A program made the position numbers and the translations under genes. A stretch of 64,000 nt of DNA. Source: Clostridia bacterium (lineage in GTDB: Bacteria; Bacillota; Clostridia; Oscillospirales; Butyricicoccaceae). Position 1 is the first letter of the stretch, and every line of letters starts with the position of its first letter. Positions 10,011 to 56,799 of this stretch are shown here, in pieces. Below the pieces are notes generated by a model. It was not told the origin of the DNA. It saw nothing but the letters and a program-made list of their open reading frames with translations, and made no database searches. The DNA is taken from positions 1-64,000 of the forward strand of contig JAQXOO010000015.1 of assembly GCA_029099685.1 (NCBI GenBank), written 5' to 3'.

Positions 10011-10775
10011 TCACTGGTTGTTTCCGCCCGTGCTTTCCGCGCCCACATCGGCGCCCAGGTCACAGGTGTAGACCCAGCAAACGGCGTCCCCGTCCTGCAG
10101 CGTGTACTGGCTGCAGCCGTAGTTGGGAAAGACCCCGTTGACACTGTACATCCATCCCGACAGGTCCCCCGCGTCAAAGGCATACAGGTTGCAGATACCC
10201 TCGATATAGGCGCTGTTGTACAGGGGCGTCTGGACGAACTCCAGGTGCAGCTTTTGCTGCTTCATGGTGCGCTGCAGCACGTTGAACACGCTCTCTCCCT
10301 GGGAAAACGCCACCGTGGTGGCGGCCAGCAGCACGCCGTCCCCGGGCACCAGCTCCGCCTTGTCCGGGTCCAGGCTGCTGTTGCCCACCAGGGTGTCGCA
10401 GCGGATCTCCAGGGTGCATTGCAGCTGCGTCTGGGCAGGCGGCGTCTCCGGCTGCTGCGGCTCCGGGGGCTGCTCCGGCTGGGCAGGGGGCGTCTCCTGT
10501 CCCGGCTGCTCCGGCGGCTGCTCCTCCTGCCCCTCCGCCGGGGCGGGCCCGCTTTCCTCCGGCAGCGCTGCGGTGCCGTCCGGGGCAGGGTCCTCCGCCG
10601 TGGCCTGTCCCCCTGTCTGTTCCGGGTCCGCCGGCTGGCTGGGACCGGAGGGCTCCGGGCCTTCCGCCACAGGCTCTGTCAGCGGCGGCCGTTCCGGCCC
10701 GGCCGCCGCGCCGCACCCGGCCAAAAGGCACAGGGCCAGCACACACGCCGTCAGGGCGCTCCAATTTTTTCTCAT
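10011..10775 (-). CDS. DUF4430 (transcobalamin C-terminal-like) lipoprotein
   Basis: Lipobox LCLLAGC; Pro/Glu-rich linker; GESVFNVLQRTM...YIEGICNLYAFDAGDLSGWMYSVNGVFPNYGCSQYTLQDGDAVCWVYTCDLGADVG. Confidence 0.85.
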   Translation of the reverse strand: MRKNWSALTACVLALCLLAGCGAAAGPERPPLTEPVAEGPEPSGPSQPADPEQTGGQATAEDPAPDGTAALPEESGPAPAEGQEEQPPEQPGQETPPAQPEQPPEPQQPETPPAQTQLQCTLEIRCDTLVGNSSLDPDKAELVPGDGVLLAATTVAFSQGESVFNVLQRTMKQQKLHLEFVQTPLYNSAYIEGICNLYAFDAGDLSGWMYSVNGVFPNYGCSQYTLQDGDAVCWVYTCDLGADVGAESTGGNNQ

Positions 10776-10821
10776 ACAAACCTCCCGGCTGACAGCCGTT
10801 TTTCCGTTATTCGATTGCATC

Positions 10822-13632: not shown

Positions 13633-13840
13633 GCTCTCCCGCCTTTCCAACGGAATGATTGTATCATGTTTTTGCCGCCTTCGCAACCGGGGGAGCGTGG
13701 CGCACCTGCGCCCATCCCCTTCCTTTTCCGGCAAAAACTTCATATTTAATTAAGATTTGAAACCCTTTCCCTTCTTTGCGGTTTCCTGTATAATAAACGC
13801 AACAGACCGTTATCCGTACCCCCGCATGAAAGGAGCCCCT

Positions 13841-16747
13841 ATGAAACGCTTTTCCCGCCGCGCCGCAGCTCTGGCCCTGAGCCTGCTGCTGGCGCTGTCC
13901 CTGGTGACCCCGGCCCTGGCCGCGGGCGCCTCAGCCTACACCGTTGCCACCCAGCTATGTGACAATCTGACCCTCACCCAGCTCAACAGCCGCTCGGGCA
14001 GCACCCGGCGGCAGCAGTTCACCCTGGAATACCAGCCGGAGGGCTCCGCCTCGCCCCTGGTGCTCTACGGCGACACCCTTTACGGAAAATCCACCGTGGA
14101 ACAGGTGGTGCAGTACGCCCAGGACCAGGGCTACCACGTGCTGGCCGCGGTAAACACCGATTATTTTTCCACCTCTTCCGGCGTGCCCACAGGCATGACC
14201 ATTCAGGACGGCCGCCTGGTCTCCTCCGACGGCGGCTGGAACGCCGTGGGCTTTTTTGAGGACGGCTCCGCCCTGGTGGGCACCCCCAGGCTGACCATCA
14301 CCCTGACCACGGAGGACGGGCGGGAATACCCCATCCACGCCCTGAACAACGTCCGCACCGCCGACGGCATCTATCTGTACACCCCGGACTTTGACTACTG
14401 CACCCGCACCTCTGCCGAAGGCACCGAGGTCCTGCTGGAGCTGGACCGCCGCAGCGACGGCCTCCGGCTGGGCAAAAAGACAAAGGCCACCGTCCTGTCC
14501 GTGGCCCAGGCGAAAAACACCCCCATGGCCGAGGGCCAGATGGTGCTGAGCCTGACCGCCAACAACAAGCTGGGCCTGGACCTGGCCGCCATCCTGGGTG
14601 AGGGGGACGAGATCACCCTCCGCGCCGTGACCCAAGACGACGCCTGGGAGGATGTGGTCTGGAGCACCGGCGGCGGCAACATCCTGGTCCGTGACGGCGC
14701 CGTCACCGCCGACGCCACCGCCGGCGGCAGGGAGCCCCGCACCCTGCTGGGCACCCGCCGGGACGGCTCCGTGGTCATCGTGGAATGCGACGGCCGCCAG
14801 AGCGCCGTCAGCGCGGGCCTTTCCCTGGCGGAAGCCGCCCAGCTGATGCTGGACCAGGGCTGCACCCAGGTCATCAACCTGGACGGCGGCGGCAGCTCCG
14901 TCCTCACCGCCGCCTATCCCGGACAGCCCTCCGCCGTGCTTTCCTCTCCCTCTGACGGAAAGCCCCGGGCCGGGGCCACCTACCTGCTGTTCGTGGCCAC
15001 CGGCAGCGACCAGGGCCGGTCCTACGGCAGCGTGGTCTATCCCCGTGCCGCCACCCTGCTGTGCGGCGCGGAGCTGGAGGTCAGCGCCGTCTCCTACAAC
15101 AAATACTTCCTGGGCTTTGTGGACGCCGCCCACCGGCTGGAGGCCTCTGACGGATATGTGGAGGACGGCCTGTTCACCGCCCCCGACTACCCCGCCGACT
15201 GTCTGGTGACCACCGGCGACAGCCGCTGCCAGACCGCCCTATATACCGTCACCGACACGGTGGAAAGCCTGAAGCTTACCCGGGGCGGCAGCCCCGTCTC
15301 CTCCCTGTCGCTGGACCGCCGGGAGAGCGTGGACCTGGACGTGGCCGCCTCTGACGGCATCCGCACCGTCGTCAGCCAGGACCGCCAGTTCACCTTTACA
15401 GTGTCGGGCGGCATCGGCGAGATCGACGAAAACGGCGTGTTCACCGCCGGCGCCTACAGCGGCACCGGCTCCATCACCGTGTCCTACGGCGGCGTCTCCG
15501 CCACCATCCCGGTGACCGTCTCCGGAAAGGCCTCCGCTCTGCTGGAGGGCTTTGAAAACGGCGGGAGCTGCGGTACCTTCGGTTCCGCCCTGTCCACCGC
15601 CGCCGTCACCACCGACCTGACCCAGGTGCGTTACGGCCGCGCCGCTTTGCGGCTGACCTATTCCGGCGGCGAGGGCGATTCCGCCGAATACCTGCTGTCT
15701 GCCGCCCCCGTCCTCAACGATGTGTCCCACCTGACCCTGATGGCCAACGGCACCGGCAGCTGGTCCCTGTTGTTCCAGCTGGCTGACGGCAGCGTTTCCA
15801 CCGCGGGCTTCACCATGAACGGCAGCGGCTGGCGCACCGCCACGGTGGCCGTGCCGGGAGGCGCCGTTTCCCTGCTGGGCCTGACCTGTGAAGGCGCCGG
15901 CCAGCACATGCTGCTGCTGGACCAGCTCACCGCCCACTACGGCGCGGTGACCATGGACGCCGTGCCTCCGGTCATCACCATCGACAGCGTGGATGACCGC
16001 CTCACCGCCACCGTTTCCGACACCGGCGAGACGCCGCTGACCCGCTCCGACCTTTCTGTCACCATCGATGGCAAGGCTGCCTCCTTTACTCTGGAGAACG
16101 GCGGGCTCACCTGTGCCCTGCCGGAGGATACCGCCCTGCACCGCGTCACCGTCACCGCCCGGGACGCCGCGGGCAACCTGTCCCGCAAAAGCGCGGACGT
16201 GGGCAGCCTGAGCTGCTCCTTCTCTGACATGGACGGCCATTGGGCCGCCGCCCACGCGGAATATCTGCTGCAGAAGGGCGTGTTCTCCGCCGCGGACCGC
16301 TTCAACCCCTCCACCAAGGTAAGCAATGAAATGGCCGCAACCATGTTGTCCCGGTTCCTGGGCGTGGATACCGGCCGGTATGACAGCGTGGTCCTGCCCT
16401 ATACGGACACGGACAAGATCGCCTCCTGGGCGCTGCCCCATGTAAAGGCCATGTATGCCCTGGGCATCATGCAGGGCAGCCTGGACGCCCAGGGCCGCAG
16501 CGTCCTGTATCCCCAGAACAGCTGCTCCCGGGCGCAGATCATGACCATTCTGGGCCGCACCCTGGAGCGGGGCTATGCCTATGAGCCCTGTGTTTTCTCT
16601 GACTCCGCGAAGATCCCCACCTGGGCCAGGGACCACATTGACCTTCTGACGTCCCTGGGCGTCATCACCGGCAGCGGCGGCGCCGTAAACCCCACCGGCA
16701 CCATCACCCGCGCCGAGTTTGCCGCCCTGCTGTACCGGATGTATTGA
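13841..16747 (+). CDS. Secreted phosphodiester glycosidase (NAGPA-type) domain protein with Ig-like and SLH domains
   Basis: Signal peptide; AAVNTDYFSTSSGVPTGMTIQDGRLVSS and INLDGGGSSVLTA NAGPA motifs; C-terminal SLH repeats. Confidence 0.87.
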   Translation: MKRFSRRAAALALSLLLALSLVTPALAAGASAYTVATQLCDNLTLTQLNSRSGSTRRQQFTLEYQPEGSASPLVLYGDTLYGKSTVEQVVQYAQDQGYHVLAAVNTDYFSTSSGVPTGMTIQDGRLVSSDGGWNAVGFFEDGSALVGTPRLTITLTTEDGREYPIHALNNVRTADGIYLYTPDFDYCTRTSAEGTEVLLELDRRSDGLRLGKKTKATVLSVAQAKNTPMAEGQMVLSLTANNKLGLDLAAILGEGDEITLRAVTQDDAWEDVVWSTGGGNILVRDGAVTADATAGGREPRTLLGTRRDGSVVIVECDGRQSAVSAGLSLAEAAQLMLDQGCTQVINLDGGGSSVLTAAYPGQPSAVLSSPSDGKPRAGATYLLFVATGSDQGRSYGSVVYPRAATLLCGAELEVSAVSYNKYFLGFVDAAHRLEASDGYVEDGLFTAPDYPADCLVTTGDSRCQTALYTVTDTVESLKLTRGGSPVSSLSLDRRESVDLDVAASDGIRTVVSQDRQFTFTVSGGIGEIDENGVFTAGAYSGTGSITVSYGGVSATIPVTVSGKASALLEGFENGGSCGTFGSALSTAAVTTDLTQVRYGRAALRLTYSGGEGDSAEYLLSAAPVLNDVSHLTLMANGTGSWSLLFQLADGSVSTAGFTMNGSGWRTATVAVPGGAVSLLGLTCEGAGQHMLLLDQLTAHYGAVTMDAVPPVITIDSVDDRLTATVSDTGETPLTRSDLSVTIDGKAASFTLENGGLTCALPEDTALHRVTVTARDAAGNLSRKSADVGSLSCSFSDMDGHWAAAHAEYLLQKGVFSAADRFNPSTKVSNEMAATMLSRFLGVDTGRYDSVVLPYTDTDKIASWALPHVKAMYALGIMQGSLDAQGRSVLYPQNSCSRAQIMTILGRTLERGYAYEPCVFSDSAKIPTWARDHIDLLTSLGVITGSGGAVNPTGTITRAEFAALLYRMY

Positions 16748-17387: not shown

Positions 17388-18560
17388 CTATTTCAAGGTG
17401 AAACTCTGCAAATAATCCGGTTCGCCCAGCCGCGCAACGATCGCCGCGACCTCACAACGCTGAATATTGCTTTCCGGGCGGAAGCTGTGAGCCGCATCGC
17501 TGCCGGTAAGCACGCCCAACCGATAAAGTGTGTAGACATCATCGGCGTACTGATACGTCATGGGCACATCCGGAATTGCCCCGTCTCTCACCTCATTTTT
17601 CGGGACAACACCGCCTTCATCATACAGTGCTTTGTTGTTTTTGTAATACGCCGCAAAAATATGCGCGAACTCACTGCGTGTAATTTTGATGTTGTAATCG
17701 CTGTACTGCCAGGGAAGGCCATTTTCCTTTGCGTATTCCACATAGGGCTGATACCATGGTCCTGAAACCGGATACAGCTGTGCCGGGTCTCCCGGGATTT
17801 CTTTGACCAGCGCATCAAGGCGGACAGCCAAGGTGATGGCTTCAGCCACTGTCATGTTGTCCGCAGGGGCGAATATGCCTTCTCCCTTGCCCTTCAGCAG
17901 ACCTGCGTCTGCCAGCAGCTCAACATAGTGTGCATACCACGCATTCGCGGGAACGTCTGAGAAGACCGGCGTGGATTCCTGACCGTCCGGTTCTCCCGTA
18001 TCTCCCATATCCCCCGTATCCGTTGTTATTCCGGCAGTCAGTTCATTGGAATACATACCATAGTCGCTGCCGCTGAAGCCGATCATTTTGTTGTTGTCGT
18101 CAACATAAAAACCATCATAGTATACGCGCAGGCGGACATCCGCTGATGCCAGTTCCTCGTAGCTTTCGAGAACAGAAGTATAGCACTCTCCCTCAACGAG
18201 CATCTCACCGGGAGCATCTATGCCATCGTACACCATGTCATACTCCGTCCACGCTCCGCCGTTGACGGAATACTCTGCCCATATGCCATTGATCATGCCT
18301 ACAATGAAGCCTTCTGCCGCGCCGTTTTCCATATACCAGGTCCATGCGTCAAGCGCGCCGGGTGACTGCTCCAGATAAAATACAAGACGTGCATGGCCAC
18401 CACCCGTTTCCTCTATGTAAAGATCCGAGATATGCGGCGCGCCCCAGCTGGATGGGTCGGGACCTTTTATTGCGAAAGCCGTTGCAGGCATCAGTGAGCA
18501 GGCCATAACGACACACATCAGAAATGCCAAAGACCTGTGCAGGTACGTTCTCATTTTCAT
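17388..18560 (-). CDS. Secreted SLH-domain protein
   Basis: Signal peptide MKMRTYLHRSLAFLMCVVMACSLMPATAFA; FSDVPANAWYAHYVELLADAGLLKGKGEGIFAPADNMTVAEAITLAVRL SLH repeats. Confidence 0.85.
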   Translation of the reverse strand: MKMRTYLHRSLAFLMCVVMACSLMPATAFAIKGPDPSSWGAPHISDLYIEETGGGHARLVFYLEQSPGALDAWTWYMENGAAEGFIVGMINGIWAEYSVNGGAWTEYDMVYDGIDAPGEMLVEGECYTSVLESYEELASADVRLRVYYDGFYVDDNNKMIGFSGSDYGMYSNELTAGITTDTGDMGDTGEPDGQESTPVFSDVPANAWYAHYVELLADAGLLKGKGEGIFAPADNMTVAEAITLAVRLDALVKEIPGDPAQLYPVSGPWYQPYVEYAKENGLPWQYSDYNIKITRSEFAHIFAAYYKNNKALYDEGGVVPKNEVRDGAIPDVPMTYQYADDVYTLYRLGVLTGSDAAHSFRPESNIQRCEVAAIVARLGEPDYLQSFTLK

Positions 18561-18669
18561 TGTACTTCCTCCCAAATGTCGTGATCTTTTCATGAACATG
18601 AAGCCTCCCCGGCTCGAGTCTGTTCGTTTCTTCAAGCTTCACCCCTATCCTTTCTTTTTCTTGTTCAAG

Positions 18670-45220: not shown

Positions 45221-46303
45221 TCAGGTGGAATATAGGGCCATATAGGCAGAAATCATCATTCGGAGGAATGTTTTATGGTTATTTGAAAGGAAGCCCAGCG
45301 CGTCCGGGTGCGGGATAACGTCCGGGGCGGAAACGGCACCCCGGAAAACCGCCATATCTTCGCAAACGATCTGGCTCCGGACACGGTGCTCACCGTGGAC
45401 GAGATCGGCGGCAAGCTGGTGGTGCGATAAAAAACGAACCGCCCGGCTATTCGTGGTGCTTTTTCTTCTTATTTTCTCTTGTTCTGCTCTCTCTGCTCCC
45501 GCCTGGCCCGCCGTGGCGTTGTCCCCCACATCCTTTCCCAGGTCGCAGGTATAGACCCATTCCACCCGGTCTCCGTCCTGAAGCTGATAGCGGCTGCAGC
45601 CGTAATTGGGGAACCAGCCGTTAACGCAATACATCCATCCGGACAGGCTCCCGCAGTCAAATTCATACAGGTTCCCGATGCCCTCGATATAAGCCGAGTT
45701 GTAAATGGGCGTGTCGGTATACTCCATATGGATGCTGTTTTCCATGCACACCCGCAAAAGCACATCAAAAACACTCTCATTTTCATAAAAAGTCACGGTC
45801 AGCGGCTGCAGGATCCAGCCGTCCGCAGGTACTAGTTCCGTCTTTTCCGGGTCCAGACTGTCCATGTTGTCCAGGATCGCAGCGCAGGATATGGAAAGAA
45901 CGCAGGAACAGGCGGTATCCGTGACCTCCGTGTTCTGGGGCTCCACCGGCTTCGGTTTTCCCTCCGGGACCGGGTCGGTGCGGTAGGCATCCTGCCGGGG
46001 CTTCTGAGCTGAGGACTGCCCGGTGCCGCTTTCTGTGCCGGAGGAATGGACTTCTTCCCCCTCCGGTCCGCTGCTTTCAGGCGGCACATCCCGCGGGTCT
46101 CCATTTTCCTCCGGCGGAGACTGTTCTTTCACACCGCCGGGCCGCTCCGTCGCAGGCGCATCTCCCGTGGTCCCGCTTCCGTCAGTCTGCCGTCCCGGGA
46201 GCGGGGCGGGGACGTCCCCGGCCGCCGGCGCGGCGCAGGCGCCTGCCAGCACGGCCACCAGCAGCACTGCCGCCAGGATGCGGCGCGGATGTTTCTTCCC
46301 CAT
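45221..46303 (-). CDS. DUF4430 (transcobalamin C-terminal-like) lipoprotein with anomalous C-terminal extension
   Basis: Lipobox LVAVLAGAC; ENESVFDVLLRVCMENSIHMEYTDTPIYNSAYIEGIGNLYEFDCGSLSGWMYCVNGWFPNYGCSRYQLQDGDRVEWVYTCDLGKDVG; tail is encoded over the direct repeat and antisense to the clpB copy. Confidence 0.8.
   Translation of the reverse strand: MGKKHPRRILAAVLLVAVLAGACAAPAAGDVPAPLPGRQTDGSGTTGDAPATERPGGVKEQSPPEENGDPRDVPPESSGPEGEEVHSSGTESGTGQSSAQKPRQDAYRTDPVPEGKPKPVEPQNTEVTDTACSCVLSISCAAILDNMDSLDPEKTELVPADGWILQPLTVTFYENESVFDVLLRVCMENSIHMEYTDTPIYNSAYIEGIGNLYEFDCGSLSGWMYCVNGWFPNYGCSRYQLQDGDRVEWVYTCDLGKDVGDNATAGQAGAERAEQEKIRRKSTTNSRAVRFLSHHQLAADLVHGEHRVRSQIVCEDMAVFRGAVSAPDVIPHPDALGFLSNNHKTFLRMMISAYMALYST
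45349..45432 (+). repeat. Partial duplicate of the clpB 3' end
   Basis: Aligns without gaps to 43801-43884 with a 44-nt perfect core tcgcaaacgatctggctccggacacggtgctcaccgtggacgag and ends at the same stop codon. Confidence 0.88.
45455..45510. repeat. 56-bp direct repeat, left copy
   Basis: 51/56 identical to 57593-57648, last 33 nt identical (cttgttctgctctctctgctcccgcctggcccg). Confidence 0.88.
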
Positions 46304-46306
46304 GGT

Positions 46307-47803
46307 TCACTGCCCCCCTGCCAGCGCCAGCAGATTGCAGACCATCTGCGCCACCTCCCAGCGCAGGATGGCCTGTTTGGGCCGGAGAGACCCGGTCCAG
46401 GGCGCTATGCCGCTTCCGCAGCAGTCAGCCAGGGCGGCCCTGGCCCAGGAGGCCGCTTCCCTGCCGTCGGAAAAGCCCGCCAGCACCGCTTCCGGGTCCG
46501 CCGCACCGGTATCCAGCTTCAGGCTTTTACAGACGCGGGCCGCCATGACGGCGGCTTCCTGCCGTGTGATGGTGCCGTCCGGGCCGAATTTCCCGCCGCC
46601 GGTGCCGTTAACGATGCCCGCGGCACTGGCAGCCCCCACATAGCCGGCATACCACGCCCCGGCGGGGACGTCGGAATAGCCCTCCGCCGCCTTGGGCGCA
46701 AGGCCCAGGGCCTTGACCACCGTGGCGCAGAACTCCGCCCGGGTCATGGTCCGGTCCGGGGCAAAGGTGCCGTCGCCCATACCGTTGAGGATGCCCCGGG
46801 CCGCCAGCGTCTCAATGGCGGCCTGGTTGGGATGTCCCTGAATGTCGGAAAATGCCCCGCCTCCGGCGGGCGTGTCCGCCCCGGCCATGCGGTACAGGGA
46901 GCACATTCCCCGGGCGGCCCGCCGGGCCGCCACCAGAGCGTAAAAACCCTGTTCGGTGGACATGCCGTCCGCGCCGCTGCCGCCCCCTGCCACATGGGTG
47001 AATCCGCTGCCCCGGACATAGAAGGTCATCAGGCCGTCCAGGGCCGTGCAGCCGTTCTTCACAAAGCGGCCGTCCTCCGGGGGAATACCCAGTTCACACA
47101 GGGCCACCACCACCTGGGCGCAGGATTCGCAGTTGGCGGTGCCGTACACCGAAAAGGTGCCGTCGCCGTTCTGACTTGCAGAAAGCCAGGCCAGCGCCCG
47201 CTGGGTGGCCGCCTGCACGGCGGGCTGCTCCTGGTATTTGGCCAGAGCCTGCAGCGCCATGGCGGTGACATCGGTGTCGGGGGCATCGCTGTCCAGAGAC
47301 CAGCCGCCCCCGGCGATCTCACTGTCCAGAATGCAGTCTACATACCGCTGCCGGACGGCGCATGGGTAGCTGCCGCTGTCCAGAGCCAGCAGGGCAAAAA
47401 TGGGTCCGTTGACCCCTTGCCATACGGTTTTGTCATAATCGTTCAGGGGTGCGGTCAGATCATAGCCGCCCACATCGGTGGGGTCCTTTCCTATGGCGGT
47501 GAGCGCCAGGACCACCCGGGAATATTCGGTGTATTTGCGGCTGTGGAGCACCCCGCCGCAAGCCTTTACATAGGCAACCACCCGGTCATAATACCCCTCG
47601 GGTACCGGATATCCGCCCCGGGCCAGCCCCAGGACGGCCCATTCGCCGCCGATGGAGCCCACCTGGGGTTCAGGGGTGACCTTTTGGATATAGGCGGCGG
47701 TGTCCTCCACCGCGTCGGAAAGGGAGCCGGCAGAGGCCGGGACCATCAGGCAGAGGCACAAAAGCATCGCCAGGCCAAAGGCCCCCGTTCTGCGTCTGTT
47801 CAT
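46307..47803 (-). CDS. Secreted alpha/alpha-toroid (squalene cyclase/prenyltransferase-repeat-like) + SLH protein
   Basis: Signal peptide; WAVLGLARGGYPVPEGYYDRVVAYV...AGGGWSLDSDAPDTDVTAMALQALAKY...AWLSASQNGDGTFSVYGTANCESCAQVVVALCELG toroid repeats; SLH: AFSDIQGHPNQAAIETLAARGILNGMGDGTFAPDRTMTRAEF. Confidence 0.85.
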   Translation of the reverse strand: MNRRRTGAFGLAMLLCLCLMVPASAGSLSDAVEDTAAYIQKVTPEPQVGSIGGEWAVLGLARGGYPVPEGYYDRVVAYVKACGGVLHSRKYTEYSRVVLALTAIGKDPTDVGGYDLTAPLNDYDKTVWQGVNGPIFALLALDSGSYPCAVRQRYVDCILDSEIAGGGWSLDSDAPDTDVTAMALQALAKYQEQPAVQAATQRALAWLSASQNGDGTFSVYGTANCESCAQVVVALCELGIPPEDGRFVKNGCTALDGLMTFYVRGSGFTHVAGGGSGADGMSTEQGFYALVAARRAARGMCSLYRMAGADTPAGGGAFSDIQGHPNQAAIETLAARGILNGMGDGTFAPDRTMTRAEFCATVVKALGLAPKAAEGYSDVPAGAWYAGYVGAASAAGIVNGTGGGKFGPDGTITRQEAAVMAARVCKSLKLDTGAADPEAVLAGFSDGREAASWARAALADCCGSGIAPWTGSLRPKQAILRWEVAQMVCNLLALAGGQ

Positions 47804-47844
47804 GGGAAAACCTCCTTGCGGAACATATTCTGAATACTGCAAAT

Positions 47845-47907: not shown

Positions 47908-50900
47908 TCAGTCCGCGTTCACCACGTCCACTGCGAAGCGGTGCAGGATGGCTGCCACCTCCGCGCGGGTCGCGGTGCCTTTGGGTGCGATGGTGGTGAG
48001 GGTTCGGCCGGTGACCAGGCCCCGGGCATTGGCCCACCGCAGGGCAGGCAGGGCATATGCCGATACTTCCCCGCTGTCCGTATAGCCGGAAAGGCTGCCG
48101 GCGTCCGCGGTGTCATAGCCCTTATAGGCGGCGTAGCGGTACAGGATGGCCGCCATCTGCTCCCGGGTGATGCTGTCTCCGGTGCCGAACAAGCCGTTTC
48201 CGTAGCCGTTGACGATCCTGTACTGGGAAGCCCAGGTCACCGCGTCGGTGTACCACTGTCCGGGCAGAACGTCGGCATATTCGGCGCTGCCGGAGACCGC
48301 CGGCCGGCCCTCCAGCCGGTACAGCACCGTGACCAGCATGGCGCGGGTCATGGGCGTGCCGGGCGAAAACAGGGTTTCGGTGGTGCCGTTGAACAGGCCC
48401 GCTCCGGTGACATACCGGACGTCCTCGTAATACCAGTTTGCTTCGCTGACATCCAGGAAGCCCGTCCGGATGCTCTCGCCGGGCTGCTGGGTGGCGCCGC
48501 TGCTGTCCAGGCCGGCGGCATATGTTTCCGGCGTGATGTCCGGGGCCTCCAGCCACCGCCGGTAATAGACGCTGGAGCTGCTGCGCTCCTCCAGGGTATA
48601 GTCATCCACATAGTGCCAGATGATCTCGTCGCCGTCCTTGAGGACATAGTCCTGGAGGCCCACGTCGGGATGCCTGCCGTTTACGGTATACATCCAGCCG
48701 GAGTTTTTGCCGTTGTAAAACTCTGCCAGCCAGTAGCCGCCCAGCACAGCGGGCGCCCGGATGGCGGAAACATAATTGCTGTCCGCGCCCCGCTGGCTCA
48801 GGCTGTAATCGCCGATGGCCGCCAGGAACACGTCGTAAACCGTATCGCCCTTGGCGATCTCATAGGTGGTGGTCTTGATCCAGGTGACATACCCGTCATG
48901 GTCCCGGACGCCGCCGTCATGGACGGTGTCGCCGATCAGACGGAAGGTGACCTCCAGGAGGTCTCTGCGGAGGGGGATCTCCTCCATGGCCTCCAGGGCA
49001 CTGTCCAGCGCCTTTTCGATCTCCTCGGTGCAGGGGGCCCGCCGGATGGCCGTGCGGCCCTTGCTGTATTCTGCCTTCAGGCCGCTCCAGCCGGCGGCGG
49101 CATAGTCGTCCTGGTCATAGGTTTCATATGCGCTTTCCAGTTCGTCCAGCGCCCGCTGGATGGCTTTGTCCAGCAGGGTGTCAAACTGCTCCCGCGCCTG
49201 GGCCAGCTTGTTTGCGTTGGGGACCTGGGCCTTCTGGCTGTCAGAGAGCTGCGCGTACAGCGCTTCCGCTTCCTCCAGGGCCTTCAGGGACGCCCGGTCC
49301 GCCTTTCGGATGCTCAGCCGGTCGATGGCCTCGGCCGCCGCGCCGGCGGGATCCGCCGCCAGACGGAAGGAGGCCTCCAGGACAACGTCGCTGCCGGGCA
49401 TGGTGAAGCTGGCCGTGCCCTCGGTCACGGACAGGGCCGTGCCGTTCACGGTCAGGCTCACCAGCTCATAACCTGCGGCGGGTGCCGCGGTCACGGTGAT
49501 CTCCGTGCCGGCAGGTGCCCGGAAGGCGCTGGGCGTCACGGTGCCGTTGACCGCCGTGACCGTGATGGTGTGGCTGACTGCCGTGTCGGACATGTCATAC
49601 AGGCTGCTCTTTCCCTCTTTCAGGCGGAACCAGGAAGCCAGCGCATAGAAGGACTGCTCGGTAGCCATCTGGTTATAGCTGCCGCTTGCACTGTGCCGGA
49701 AGCCGTTTTTGCTGCCCTCTGCATAGAAAGCGCGCAGGCCGTCCAGCAGGGTTTTGCTGTTTTTGGTGAATCCGGCGTCGGAGCCCGGGTCGCGGCCCAG
49801 CCCGGTCAGGGCAACGATCACCTGGGCGGTGTTTTCGGCCGAAGCGTTCTGCCCTTTGGGCTTGATCTGGCCTTCCCCGTTCATCAGTCCGGCCAGATAA
49901 TCCAGCGCCTTGTCCACAGCGGCCTTCACGCCGTTATCGGTCTGGTAATAGGGCGCCAGCGCCTGCACCGCCATGGCGGTGGTATCGCAGTCGGCGTCGC
50001 CCGAGGTGATGTACCAGCCGCCGTTTTCCAGCTGCTTATCCAGCAGGCTCCGGACCAGGGCGTCCTTGTTTTCCGCCTCATAGCCGGCGGCGTTGATGGC
50101 CAGCAGGGCAAAGGCCGTGCTGTTGTTGCCCTGGCCGGTGACCCAGGCGGTGTCCTCCAGCGCCTTCATCAGGTCCATTCCCTTGTAGGCGGCGGGATCG
50201 TTGCCCAGCGCCCGCAGCGTCAGGGCGATGCGTTCATTCTCGGTGGGCCGGGTCTCGCTGAGGACGCCGGTCTCCGCGTTATAGTTTTCTTCCAGATAGG
50301 CGTCCAGCGCTCCGTAATAGGCCTCCAGCATGGTCTCCGGGATGGCCTGTCCGCCGCGCGCCAGGCCCAGCATCATCCACTCGCCCCGCTGGGAGCCGGT
50401 GGTGACGTCGGTTGCCAGCAGGGTCCGGGCCGTCTTCTCATAGATCTCCCGCAGGGCCGCAAGCTGCGCCTGTTCCTGTTCCAGTCCGGCCAGTGCCGCC
50501 TCGGCGGCGGTCAGATCCGCATAATTCTCCACCAGCGCCTTCTGGCCTTCGGTCAGCCCGTTATAGGCCGCTCTGGCCGCGCTGATGGCGTCCGCGCTTT
50601 CCGTGGTGACCGGCGTGCCGATGGCATTGATCAGGGCTTCAACCGCATCCGCGGCCTCCCGGTCGGGATCAGGCAGGCCGGTGCCGGTTTCCACCGTGAA
50701 CCCGCTGAACCACGCCCGGTCGCTGCCGCCGGCGGCGGAGCTGTCCTTCGCAAAGGCAAAGGTAAAGGTATAGGTGCCGGCCTCCAGCGTCCGTGCAAAG
50801 GAACCGTCTACGGTACCGCTGATGCCGCCGGCGACCGGTTCATCGCCCAGAGAGATCGTCAGCTTATCATAATCACGCTCCGAGGACACGCCGTAGGCAA

Positions 50901-56799: not shown

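What the first reader, a model, noticed from the sequence alone, without database searches (positions are those of the whole stretch)
47908..56799. 2963-aa protein combining two DUF4430 domains, a PQQ-like beta-propeller and an alpha/alpha toroid on an SLH anchor
A toroid segment (about 50480-49620) is followed by DUF4430 (about 48905-48590) in one polypeptide, matching the transcobalamin domain order. A beta-propeller and a second DUF4430 lie at the N-terminus. Bacteroides BtuG, a surface B12-binding protein, is a beta-propeller, so the propeller may be an independent corrinoid-binding module. That last point is inference only.
Basis: partly seen in the sequence, partly recalled or inferred. 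Interest (0 to 1): 0.85.

Follow-up and report, generated by a model that had tools for sequence, protein, structure and literature searches.

The report
Giant surface vitamin B12 capture protein
A gut Clostridia bacterium encodes a nearly 3,000-residue surface protein, switched by a vitamin B12 riboswitch, that joins a bacterial version of our own B12 carriers (intrinsic factor, transcobalamin) to a propeller domain that elsewhere stands alone in B12 uptake operons; it is a strong, untested candidate for how Gram-positive gut bacteria catch B12 at their surface.

Summary
A single 2963-aa frame on the minus strand carries two DUF4430 domains, a PQQ-type propeller, an alpha/alpha toroid and three SLH repeats. 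A cobalamin riboswitch plus terminator lies just upstream (57234-57368, 57134-57161). Downstream follow a toroid-SLH protein and a DUF4430 lipoprotein. In relatives the same gene order runs on into an ECF transporter and, in one, CobT/CobU. Across 61 genomes, 31 of 80 DUF4430 hits sit downstream of a cobalamin riboswitch (0.45 expected, none on the wrong side). AlphaFold plus Foldseek puts transcobalamin and intrinsic factor as the top eight matches for the toroid-DUF4430 segment. The propeller resembles BamB, not BtuG. Yet its homologues carry a cobalamin riboswitch upstream in 16 of 25 cases (0.3 expected) and sit in DUF4430/ECF operons in 15 of 24 loci, ten of them without any detectable toroid. 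So the propeller looks like a second, independent B12-uptake module. Corrinoid binding itself is unproven. Burroughs et al. (2007, PMC1796856) already predicted bacterial toroid-SLBB and propeller-SLBB B12 scavengers, so this is a new variant of a predicted, untested kind.

The parts
47908..56799 (-). 2963-aa secreted SLH-anchored protein (P0001)
56362..56694 (-). N-terminal DUF4430 (aa 36-146)
   Evidence: Pfam PF14478
56050..56328 (-). Cadherin-like beta sandwich (aa 158-250); recurs as DUF4430-Cad-propeller in homologues
54628..55797 (-). PQQ/BamB-type beta-propeller (about aa 335-724)
   Evidence: Pfam PQQ_2; AF2 pLDDT 85, pTM 0.84; Foldseek
52300..54507 (-). middle region (aa 765-1500), probably beta-type modules, conserved in homologues, no Pfam family
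51520..52287 (-). GLUG-like repeat region (aa 1505-1760)
   Evidence: weak Pfam Glug
49600..50487 (-). alpha/alpha toroid (aa 2105-2400), transcobalamin alpha-domain-like
49363..49572 (-). Flg_new_2 sheet domain (aa 2410-2479) between toroid and DUF4430
48880..49344 (-). long helical spacer (aa 2486-2640)
   Evidence: AF2; no Pfam hit
48580..48882 (-). C-terminal DUF4430 (aa 2640-2740), transcobalamin beta-domain-like
47911..48492 (-). three SLH repeats (cell-wall anchor)
   Evidence: PDB sequence match to S-layer protein Sap
57234..57368 (-). cobalamin riboswitch RF00174, 39.7 bits (cut-off 31.5)
57134..57161 (-). intrinsic terminator, 12-bp stem plus T run, after the riboswitch
57452..57479 (-). 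sigma-70-like promoter upstream of the riboswitch
   Evidence: consensus match only
56967..57110 (-). small DUF2292 ORF (47 aa) between terminator and giant gene
46307..47842 (-). toroid + SLH protein (P0002; likely ATG start at 47803), same operon
45221..46303 (-). DUF4430 lipoprotein (P0003), same operon
10011..10820 (-). second DUF4430 lipoprotein paralogue (P0006), separate locus

Best explanation
The giant protein is a cell-wall-anchored, B12-repressed corrinoid capture protein. Shown by computation: the operon starts with a cobalamin riboswitch and terminator, so it is probably transcribed when intracellular B12 is low; the protein is SLH-anchored and has a signal-peptide-like N-terminus; it carries a toroid plus DUF4430 pair with the transcobalamin/intrinsic-factor folds. 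Inferred: this pair clamps a corrinoid between the two domains as in transcobalamin, and the N-terminal DUF4430-Cad-propeller part is a second capture unit. The corrinoid would then pass to the toroid-SLH protein and the DUF4430 lipoprotein made by the next two genes, and on to a membrane importer (an ECF transporter or BtuCDF, both encoded elsewhere in this genome).
For: Riboswitch and terminator upstream on the same strand. In 61 related genomes 31 of 80 DUF4430 hits have a cobalamin riboswitch upstream within 12 kb against 0.45 expected, none on the wrong side or strand. Riboswitch upstream in 7 of the 10 named homologous loci whose upstream DNA is visible. Triplet giant -> toroid-SLH -> DUF4430 lipoprotein conserved in L015, L016, L019-L022, continuing into EcfT, EcfA, S component or CobT and CobU. 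The own genome has a toroid-SLH paralogue followed by CbiQ and an EcfA-EcfA-S fusion, and riboswitch-linked BtuFCD. Foldseek of the toroid-DUF4430 model: top eight hits are transcobalamin/intrinsic factor, aligned over both domains, E from 1.2e-7. Propeller: riboswitch upstream in 16/25, DUF4430 within 12 kb in 21/25; ECF genes in 15 of 24 loci, ten without a toroid.
Against: No binding data. Sequence profiles of the toroid match terpene cyclases in the PDB rather than transcobalamin, and a DUF4430 profile finds no transcobalamin by sequence. Toroid and DUF4430 are 240 aa apart, and rmsd values of mostly 7.5-10 A mean the domains are not placed as in holo-transcobalamin. Structure alignments were shallow (10 and 16 sequences). 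The operon in this window has no transporter gene, and the host still has corrin-ring synthesis genes.
Confidence: 0.82

Rival explanations
1. Only the toroid and DUF4430 bind corrinoid. The propeller is a docking or adhesion module that holds partner proteins, glycans or host B12 carriers near the uptake machinery, as BamB does for protein partners.
For: The propeller's nearest solved folds are BamB and YxaL. Burroughs et al. suggest such fused domains tether to polysaccharide (PMC1796856).
Against: In ten ECF-linked loci the propeller is present with no detectable toroid, and in L044 and L045 it is a 513-531-aa protein between riboswitch and DUF4430 lipoprotein, which fits a substrate-binding role at least as well.
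Confidence: 0.4
2. The ligand is a B12 precursor or cobalt-related compound (cobinamide, other cobamides, cobalt chelates) rather than complete B12.
For: Cobalamin riboswitches also control cobalt and precursor uptake (general knowledge); CobT and CobU, which act on cobinamide-type precursors, follow in L016. CbiQ-type T components are present.
Against: CbiQ is a generic EcfT family; the S components resemble vitamin-type S proteins. The transcobalamin fold binds whole corrinoids.
Confidence: 0.25
3. The toroid is an enzyme of the terpene-cyclase kind, and the operon link is incidental.
For: Sequence profiles hit squalene-hopene and drimenyl diphosphate synthases; this copy has a DCDTTAM motif reminiscent of the DXDD/DXDTT cyclase motif (sequence; motif knowledge from memory).
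Against: Exported location, a single toroid rather than the paired domains of class II cyclases (general knowledge), motif varies in relatives, and transcobalamin is the best structural match.
Confidence: 0.03
4. It is a structural S-layer protein of the cell wall that happens to sit in a B12-regulated operon.
For: SLH anchor, many beta modules, large size.
Against: Recurrent association of each ligand-type module with cobalamin riboswitches.
Confidence: 0.04

Closest known systems
Transcobalamin / intrinsic factor / haptocorrin (animal B12 carriers)
   Same: alpha/alpha toroid followed by a DUF4430 (SLBB beta-grasp) domain; top structural matches
   Different: bacterial, wall-anchored, 240-aa insert between the domains, extra DUF4430 and propeller, no detectable sequence similarity to the solved carriers
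Bacterial transcobalamin-like SLBB proteins predicted by Burroughs et al. 2007 (PMC1796856)
   Same: toroid-SLBB and propeller-SLBB fusions, second extracellular SLBB protein in the operon, CbiO/CbiQ neighbours, proposed B12 scavenging
   Different: here propeller and toroid are in one SLH-anchored polypeptide; cobalamin riboswitch control shown; propeller shown to occur in such operons without the toroid; host keeps corrin synthesis genes
BtuG (Bacteroides surface B12-binding lipoprotein, PMC6143338)
   Same: surface beta-propeller in a B12 uptake locus
   Different: BtuG is seven-bladed, confined to Bacteroidetes and linked to BtuB; this propeller is BamB-like and linked to ECF transporters
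ECF-CbrT cobalamin transporter (PMC5997447)
   Same: ECF-type B12 import module of Gram-positives; relatives of this operon carry EcfT/EcfA/S genes
   Different: no surface capture protein is named in what I read of that work (search abstract only)

Membership tests
Transcobalamin-type B12 carriers | N-terminal alpha/alpha toroid fold | tested here: met
   AF2 + Foldseek
Transcobalamin-type B12 carriers | C-terminal DUF4430/SLBB domain after the toroid in one chain | tested here: met
Transcobalamin-type B12 carriers | domains joined by a short linker and closed on one ligand | tested here: not met
   about 240 aa intervene; rmsd mostly 7.5-10 A over both domains
Transcobalamin-type B12 carriers | B12 contact residues and binding | not tested
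   no coordinates or ligand docking available; no assay
Gram-positive SLBB B12 scavengers (Burroughs 2007) | second extracellular SLBB protein in the operon | tested here: met
   45221-46303; conserved in relatives
Gram-positive SLBB B12 scavengers (Burroughs 2007) | CbiO/CbiQ-type genes in the operon | tested here: inconclusive
   absent downstream in this window; present next to the toroid paralogue in the same genome and in relatives' operons
Gram-positive SLBB B12 scavengers (Burroughs 2007) | host usually lacks B12 synthesis | tested here: not met
   CbiC, CbiD, CbiG, methylases and a CobB/CobQ-type amidotransferase on contig C13; the paper calls it usual, not required
Cobalamin-riboswitch regulon | RF00174 element with expression platform upstream on the same strand | tested here: met
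BtuG | seven-bladed BtuG-type propeller | tested here: not met
   50 best matches are BamB, YxaL, tetrathionate hydrolase and quinoprotein folds; BtuG rank below 50 unknown
BtuG | femtomolar B12 binding | not testable with these tools
   needs an assay

The most novel reading that the evidence does not exclude
Gram-positive bacteria evolved two unrelated surface corrinoid receptors, a transcobalamin-like toroid and a BamB-like propeller, each paired with a DUF4430 domain and interchangeable in front of the same ECF importers. This giant protein carries both as a double receptor. The propeller would be a B12-binding design independent of both BtuG and transcobalamin.
Probability: 0.42. Interest if true: 0.85.

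Novelty: new variant of a known kind. Interest (0 to 1): 0.66.

Why it matters
How Gram-positive gut bacteria collect B12 across their thick wall is little studied compared with Bacteroides. This locus gives a concrete, testable machine: a riboswitch-controlled surface receptor built from the same two domains as human intrinsic factor and transcobalamin, which Burroughs et al. proposed animals took from such bacteria. If the propeller also binds corrinoids, it reveals a separate solution to B12 capture and new competitors for the vitamin in the gut.

Tried and rejected
Sequence-only routes to transcobalamin: profiles of the toroid and of DUF4430 against PDB sequences gave terpene cyclases, S-layer proteins and noise, so the claim rests on fold comparison and context. 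BtuG as the propeller's closest relative: rejected as stated. Propeller sequence against the PDB: only a weak methanol dehydrogenase hit. Aligning the leader with that of L017 was uninformative. A first Pfam test of the small leader ORF used the wrong frame; repeated correctly. In one search one placeholder row made the CbiQ count 12; the true count is 11 of 25. Searches for papers on DUF4430 in B12 uptake found nothing beyond the 2007 prediction. The large plus-strand ORFs over the gene (1800 and 971 aa) were not pursued: they lie antisense in a GC-rich region.

Full report
1. The feature. The minus-strand ORF 47908-56799 encodes 2963 aa. Pfam finds DUF4430 near both ends, a Cadherin-like domain, PQQ_2, Flg_new_2 and three SLH repeats. 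The order is DUF4430 (36-146), Cadherin-like (158-250), propeller (335-724), middle region, GLUG-like repeats, toroid (2105-2400), Flg_new_2, helical spacer, DUF4430 (2640-2740), SLH (2770-2963). The same order recurs in P0128, P0130 and P0146, so it is no local assembly accident.

2. Regulation. Rfam reports one element in the window: a cobalamin riboswitch at 57234-57368 on the same strand, 39.7 bits against a cut-off of 31.5. The match covers model positions 49-166, and the B12-box stretch GCCAGAAGACC is present by eye. It is followed by a 12-bp terminator hairpin with a T run at 57161-57134 and preceded by a promoter-like site at 57479-57452. A 47-aa DUF2292 ORF lies between terminator and giant gene. 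This is the layout of a transcription-off riboswitch; the on/off behaviour is inferred.

3. The operon. Directly downstream on the same strand come a toroid-SLH protein (46307-47842) and, 3 bases on, a lipoprotein with DUF4430 (45221-46303). They repeat the toroid and the DUF4430 as separate proteins.

4. Is the B12 link real or chance? In 61 related genomes, 80 DUF4430 hits and 90 cobalamin riboswitches were located. 31 DUF4430 hits have a riboswitch upstream on the same strand within 12 kb (0.45 expected), 18 within 1.5 kb (0.06 expected); none has one downstream or on the other strand. A scan of species genomes with the toroid-DUF4430 alignment gave 13 loci. Riboswitches lie upstream in L017, L019, L020, L021, L022, L026 and L027, not in L023-L025; L015, L016 and L018 are cut off upstream. 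The triplet giant, toroid-SLH, DUF4430 lipoprotein is conserved in L015, L016 and L019-L022, and L017 shows the first two before its contig ends. In L016 it continues with a CbiQ-type EcfT, a double ABC ATPase, another DUF4430 protein, CobT and CobU; in L021 with EcfT, EcfA and an S component; L025 carries BtuF- and BtuC-like genes nearby. In the window's own genome a second toroid-SLH gene on contig C1 is followed by CbiQ and an EcfA-EcfA-S fusion, a DUF4430-SLH gene on C21 follows its own cobalamin riboswitch, and C13 carries riboswitch-linked BtuFCD and cbi genes.

5. Toroid and DUF4430. AlphaFold2 on ten aligned sequences gives mean pLDDT 87 (pTM 0.59, so domain placement is uncertain). 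Foldseek against the PDB ranks transcobalamin and intrinsic factor one to eight (2v3n 1.2e-7, 2bb6, 4zrp, 8ixu, 7qbe, 3kq4), each aligned over more than 640 columns, TM-score 0.53-0.63 by target length; drimenyl diphosphate synthases follow, and haptocorrin is rank 23. By sequence alone the toroid looks like terpene cyclases. The rmsd of 7.5-10 A for most of these and the 240-aa insert show that the two domains are not predicted in the closed carrier arrangement.

6. Propeller. The model is good (pLDDT 85, pTM 0.84). The best solved matches are BamB, YxaL, tetrathionate hydrolase and quinoprotein dehydrogenases; BtuG is not in the 50 listed. Context is more telling. Propeller homologues were found in 5 of 200 genomes of the order and 21 of 394 of the class. 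Outside this genome, 25 copies were compared with cobalamin riboswitch, DUF4430 and CbiQ positions: 16 have a cobalamin riboswitch upstream on the same strand within 12 kb (0.30 expected), 21 have a DUF4430 on the same strand within 12 kb (0.32 expected), and 11 a CbiQ (with one placeholder removed). Three of the 16 riboswitches score below the Rfam cut-off. Of 24 loci read in full, 15 carry ECF genes and ten of these show no toroid by profile (L043-L046, L050, L051, L055, L059, L063, L065). In L044 and L045 the gene between riboswitch and DUF4430 lipoprotein is a 513-531-aa propeller protein with little else. Among 120 propeller proteins, 104 have a DUF4430 in the same chain and only 12 a toroid. 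Homologues share descent, so these counts are not independent events, but they span many families and genera, and absence of the toroid is recurrent.

7. Mechanism. Most likely the wall-anchored giant catches corrinoid with two units, each a large domain plus a DUF4430, and hands it inward through toroid-SLH and the lipoprotein to an ECF or BtuCDF importer. Shown here: regulation elements, architecture, folds by prediction, gene linkage. Inferred: ligand, binding site, hand-over, order of steps.

8. Prior knowledge. Burroughs et al. 2007 (PMC1796856) defined the SLBB superfamily, noted bacterial toroid-SLBB, FIVAR-SLBB and propeller-SLBB fusions, paralogous SLBB proteins in one operon and CbiO/CbiQ neighbours, and proposed B12 scavenging and transfer to animals. 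I found no experimental test in the held library. BtuG is described in PMC6143338. What is added here: riboswitch control with statistics, both modules in one SLH-anchored protein, the fold-level match, and the finding that the propeller occupies such operons without a toroid.

Noticed in passing
window 45221-46303 (-): The last ~95 residues of the DUF4430 lipoprotein do not resemble its paralogue at 10011-10820, which stops just after the domain; the tail may be a read-through or frameshifted remnant of lost downstream genes.
   Followed up: no
window 56967-57110 (-): A 47-aa DUF2292 protein is encoded between the riboswitch terminator and the giant gene; its role in a B12 operon is unknown.
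   Followed up: partly
window 10011-10820 (-): A second DUF4430 lipoprotein sits beside an M18 aminopeptidase gene with no cobalamin riboswitch nearby; its ligand may differ.
   Followed up: no
L011 1638-2897 (own genome contig C21): A 419-aa DUF4430-SLH protein directly behind its own cobalamin riboswitch, a minimal surface version without toroid or propeller; the same pattern recurs within ~350 bases in many relatives.
   Followed up: partly
L035 951-6095 (own genome contig C1): Toroid-SLH paralogue followed by CbiQ and an EcfA-EcfA-EcfS fusion, probably the membrane importer partner; the contig starts just upstream, so a riboswitch could not be seen.
   Followed up: yes
L012 (own genome contig C13): Two cobalamin riboswitches, BtuFCD and cbiC/D/G/methylase genes: the host seems able to make at least part of the corrin ring while also scavenging.
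   Followed up: partly
P0179 (Paenibacillus, 1668 aa): Toroid-toroid-DUF4430-SLH-toroid architecture, showing the module set outside Clostridia.
   Followed up: no
L022 13980-14969 and L016 13559-14335: Xylose-isomerase-like TIM barrel (AP_endonuc_2) genes recur in these B12 operons; possible cobamide-related role.
   Followed up: no
window 13757-16747 (+) and 17388-18635 (-): Other SLH-anchored proteins, one with a phosphodiester glycosidase (NAGPA) domain.
   Followed up: no
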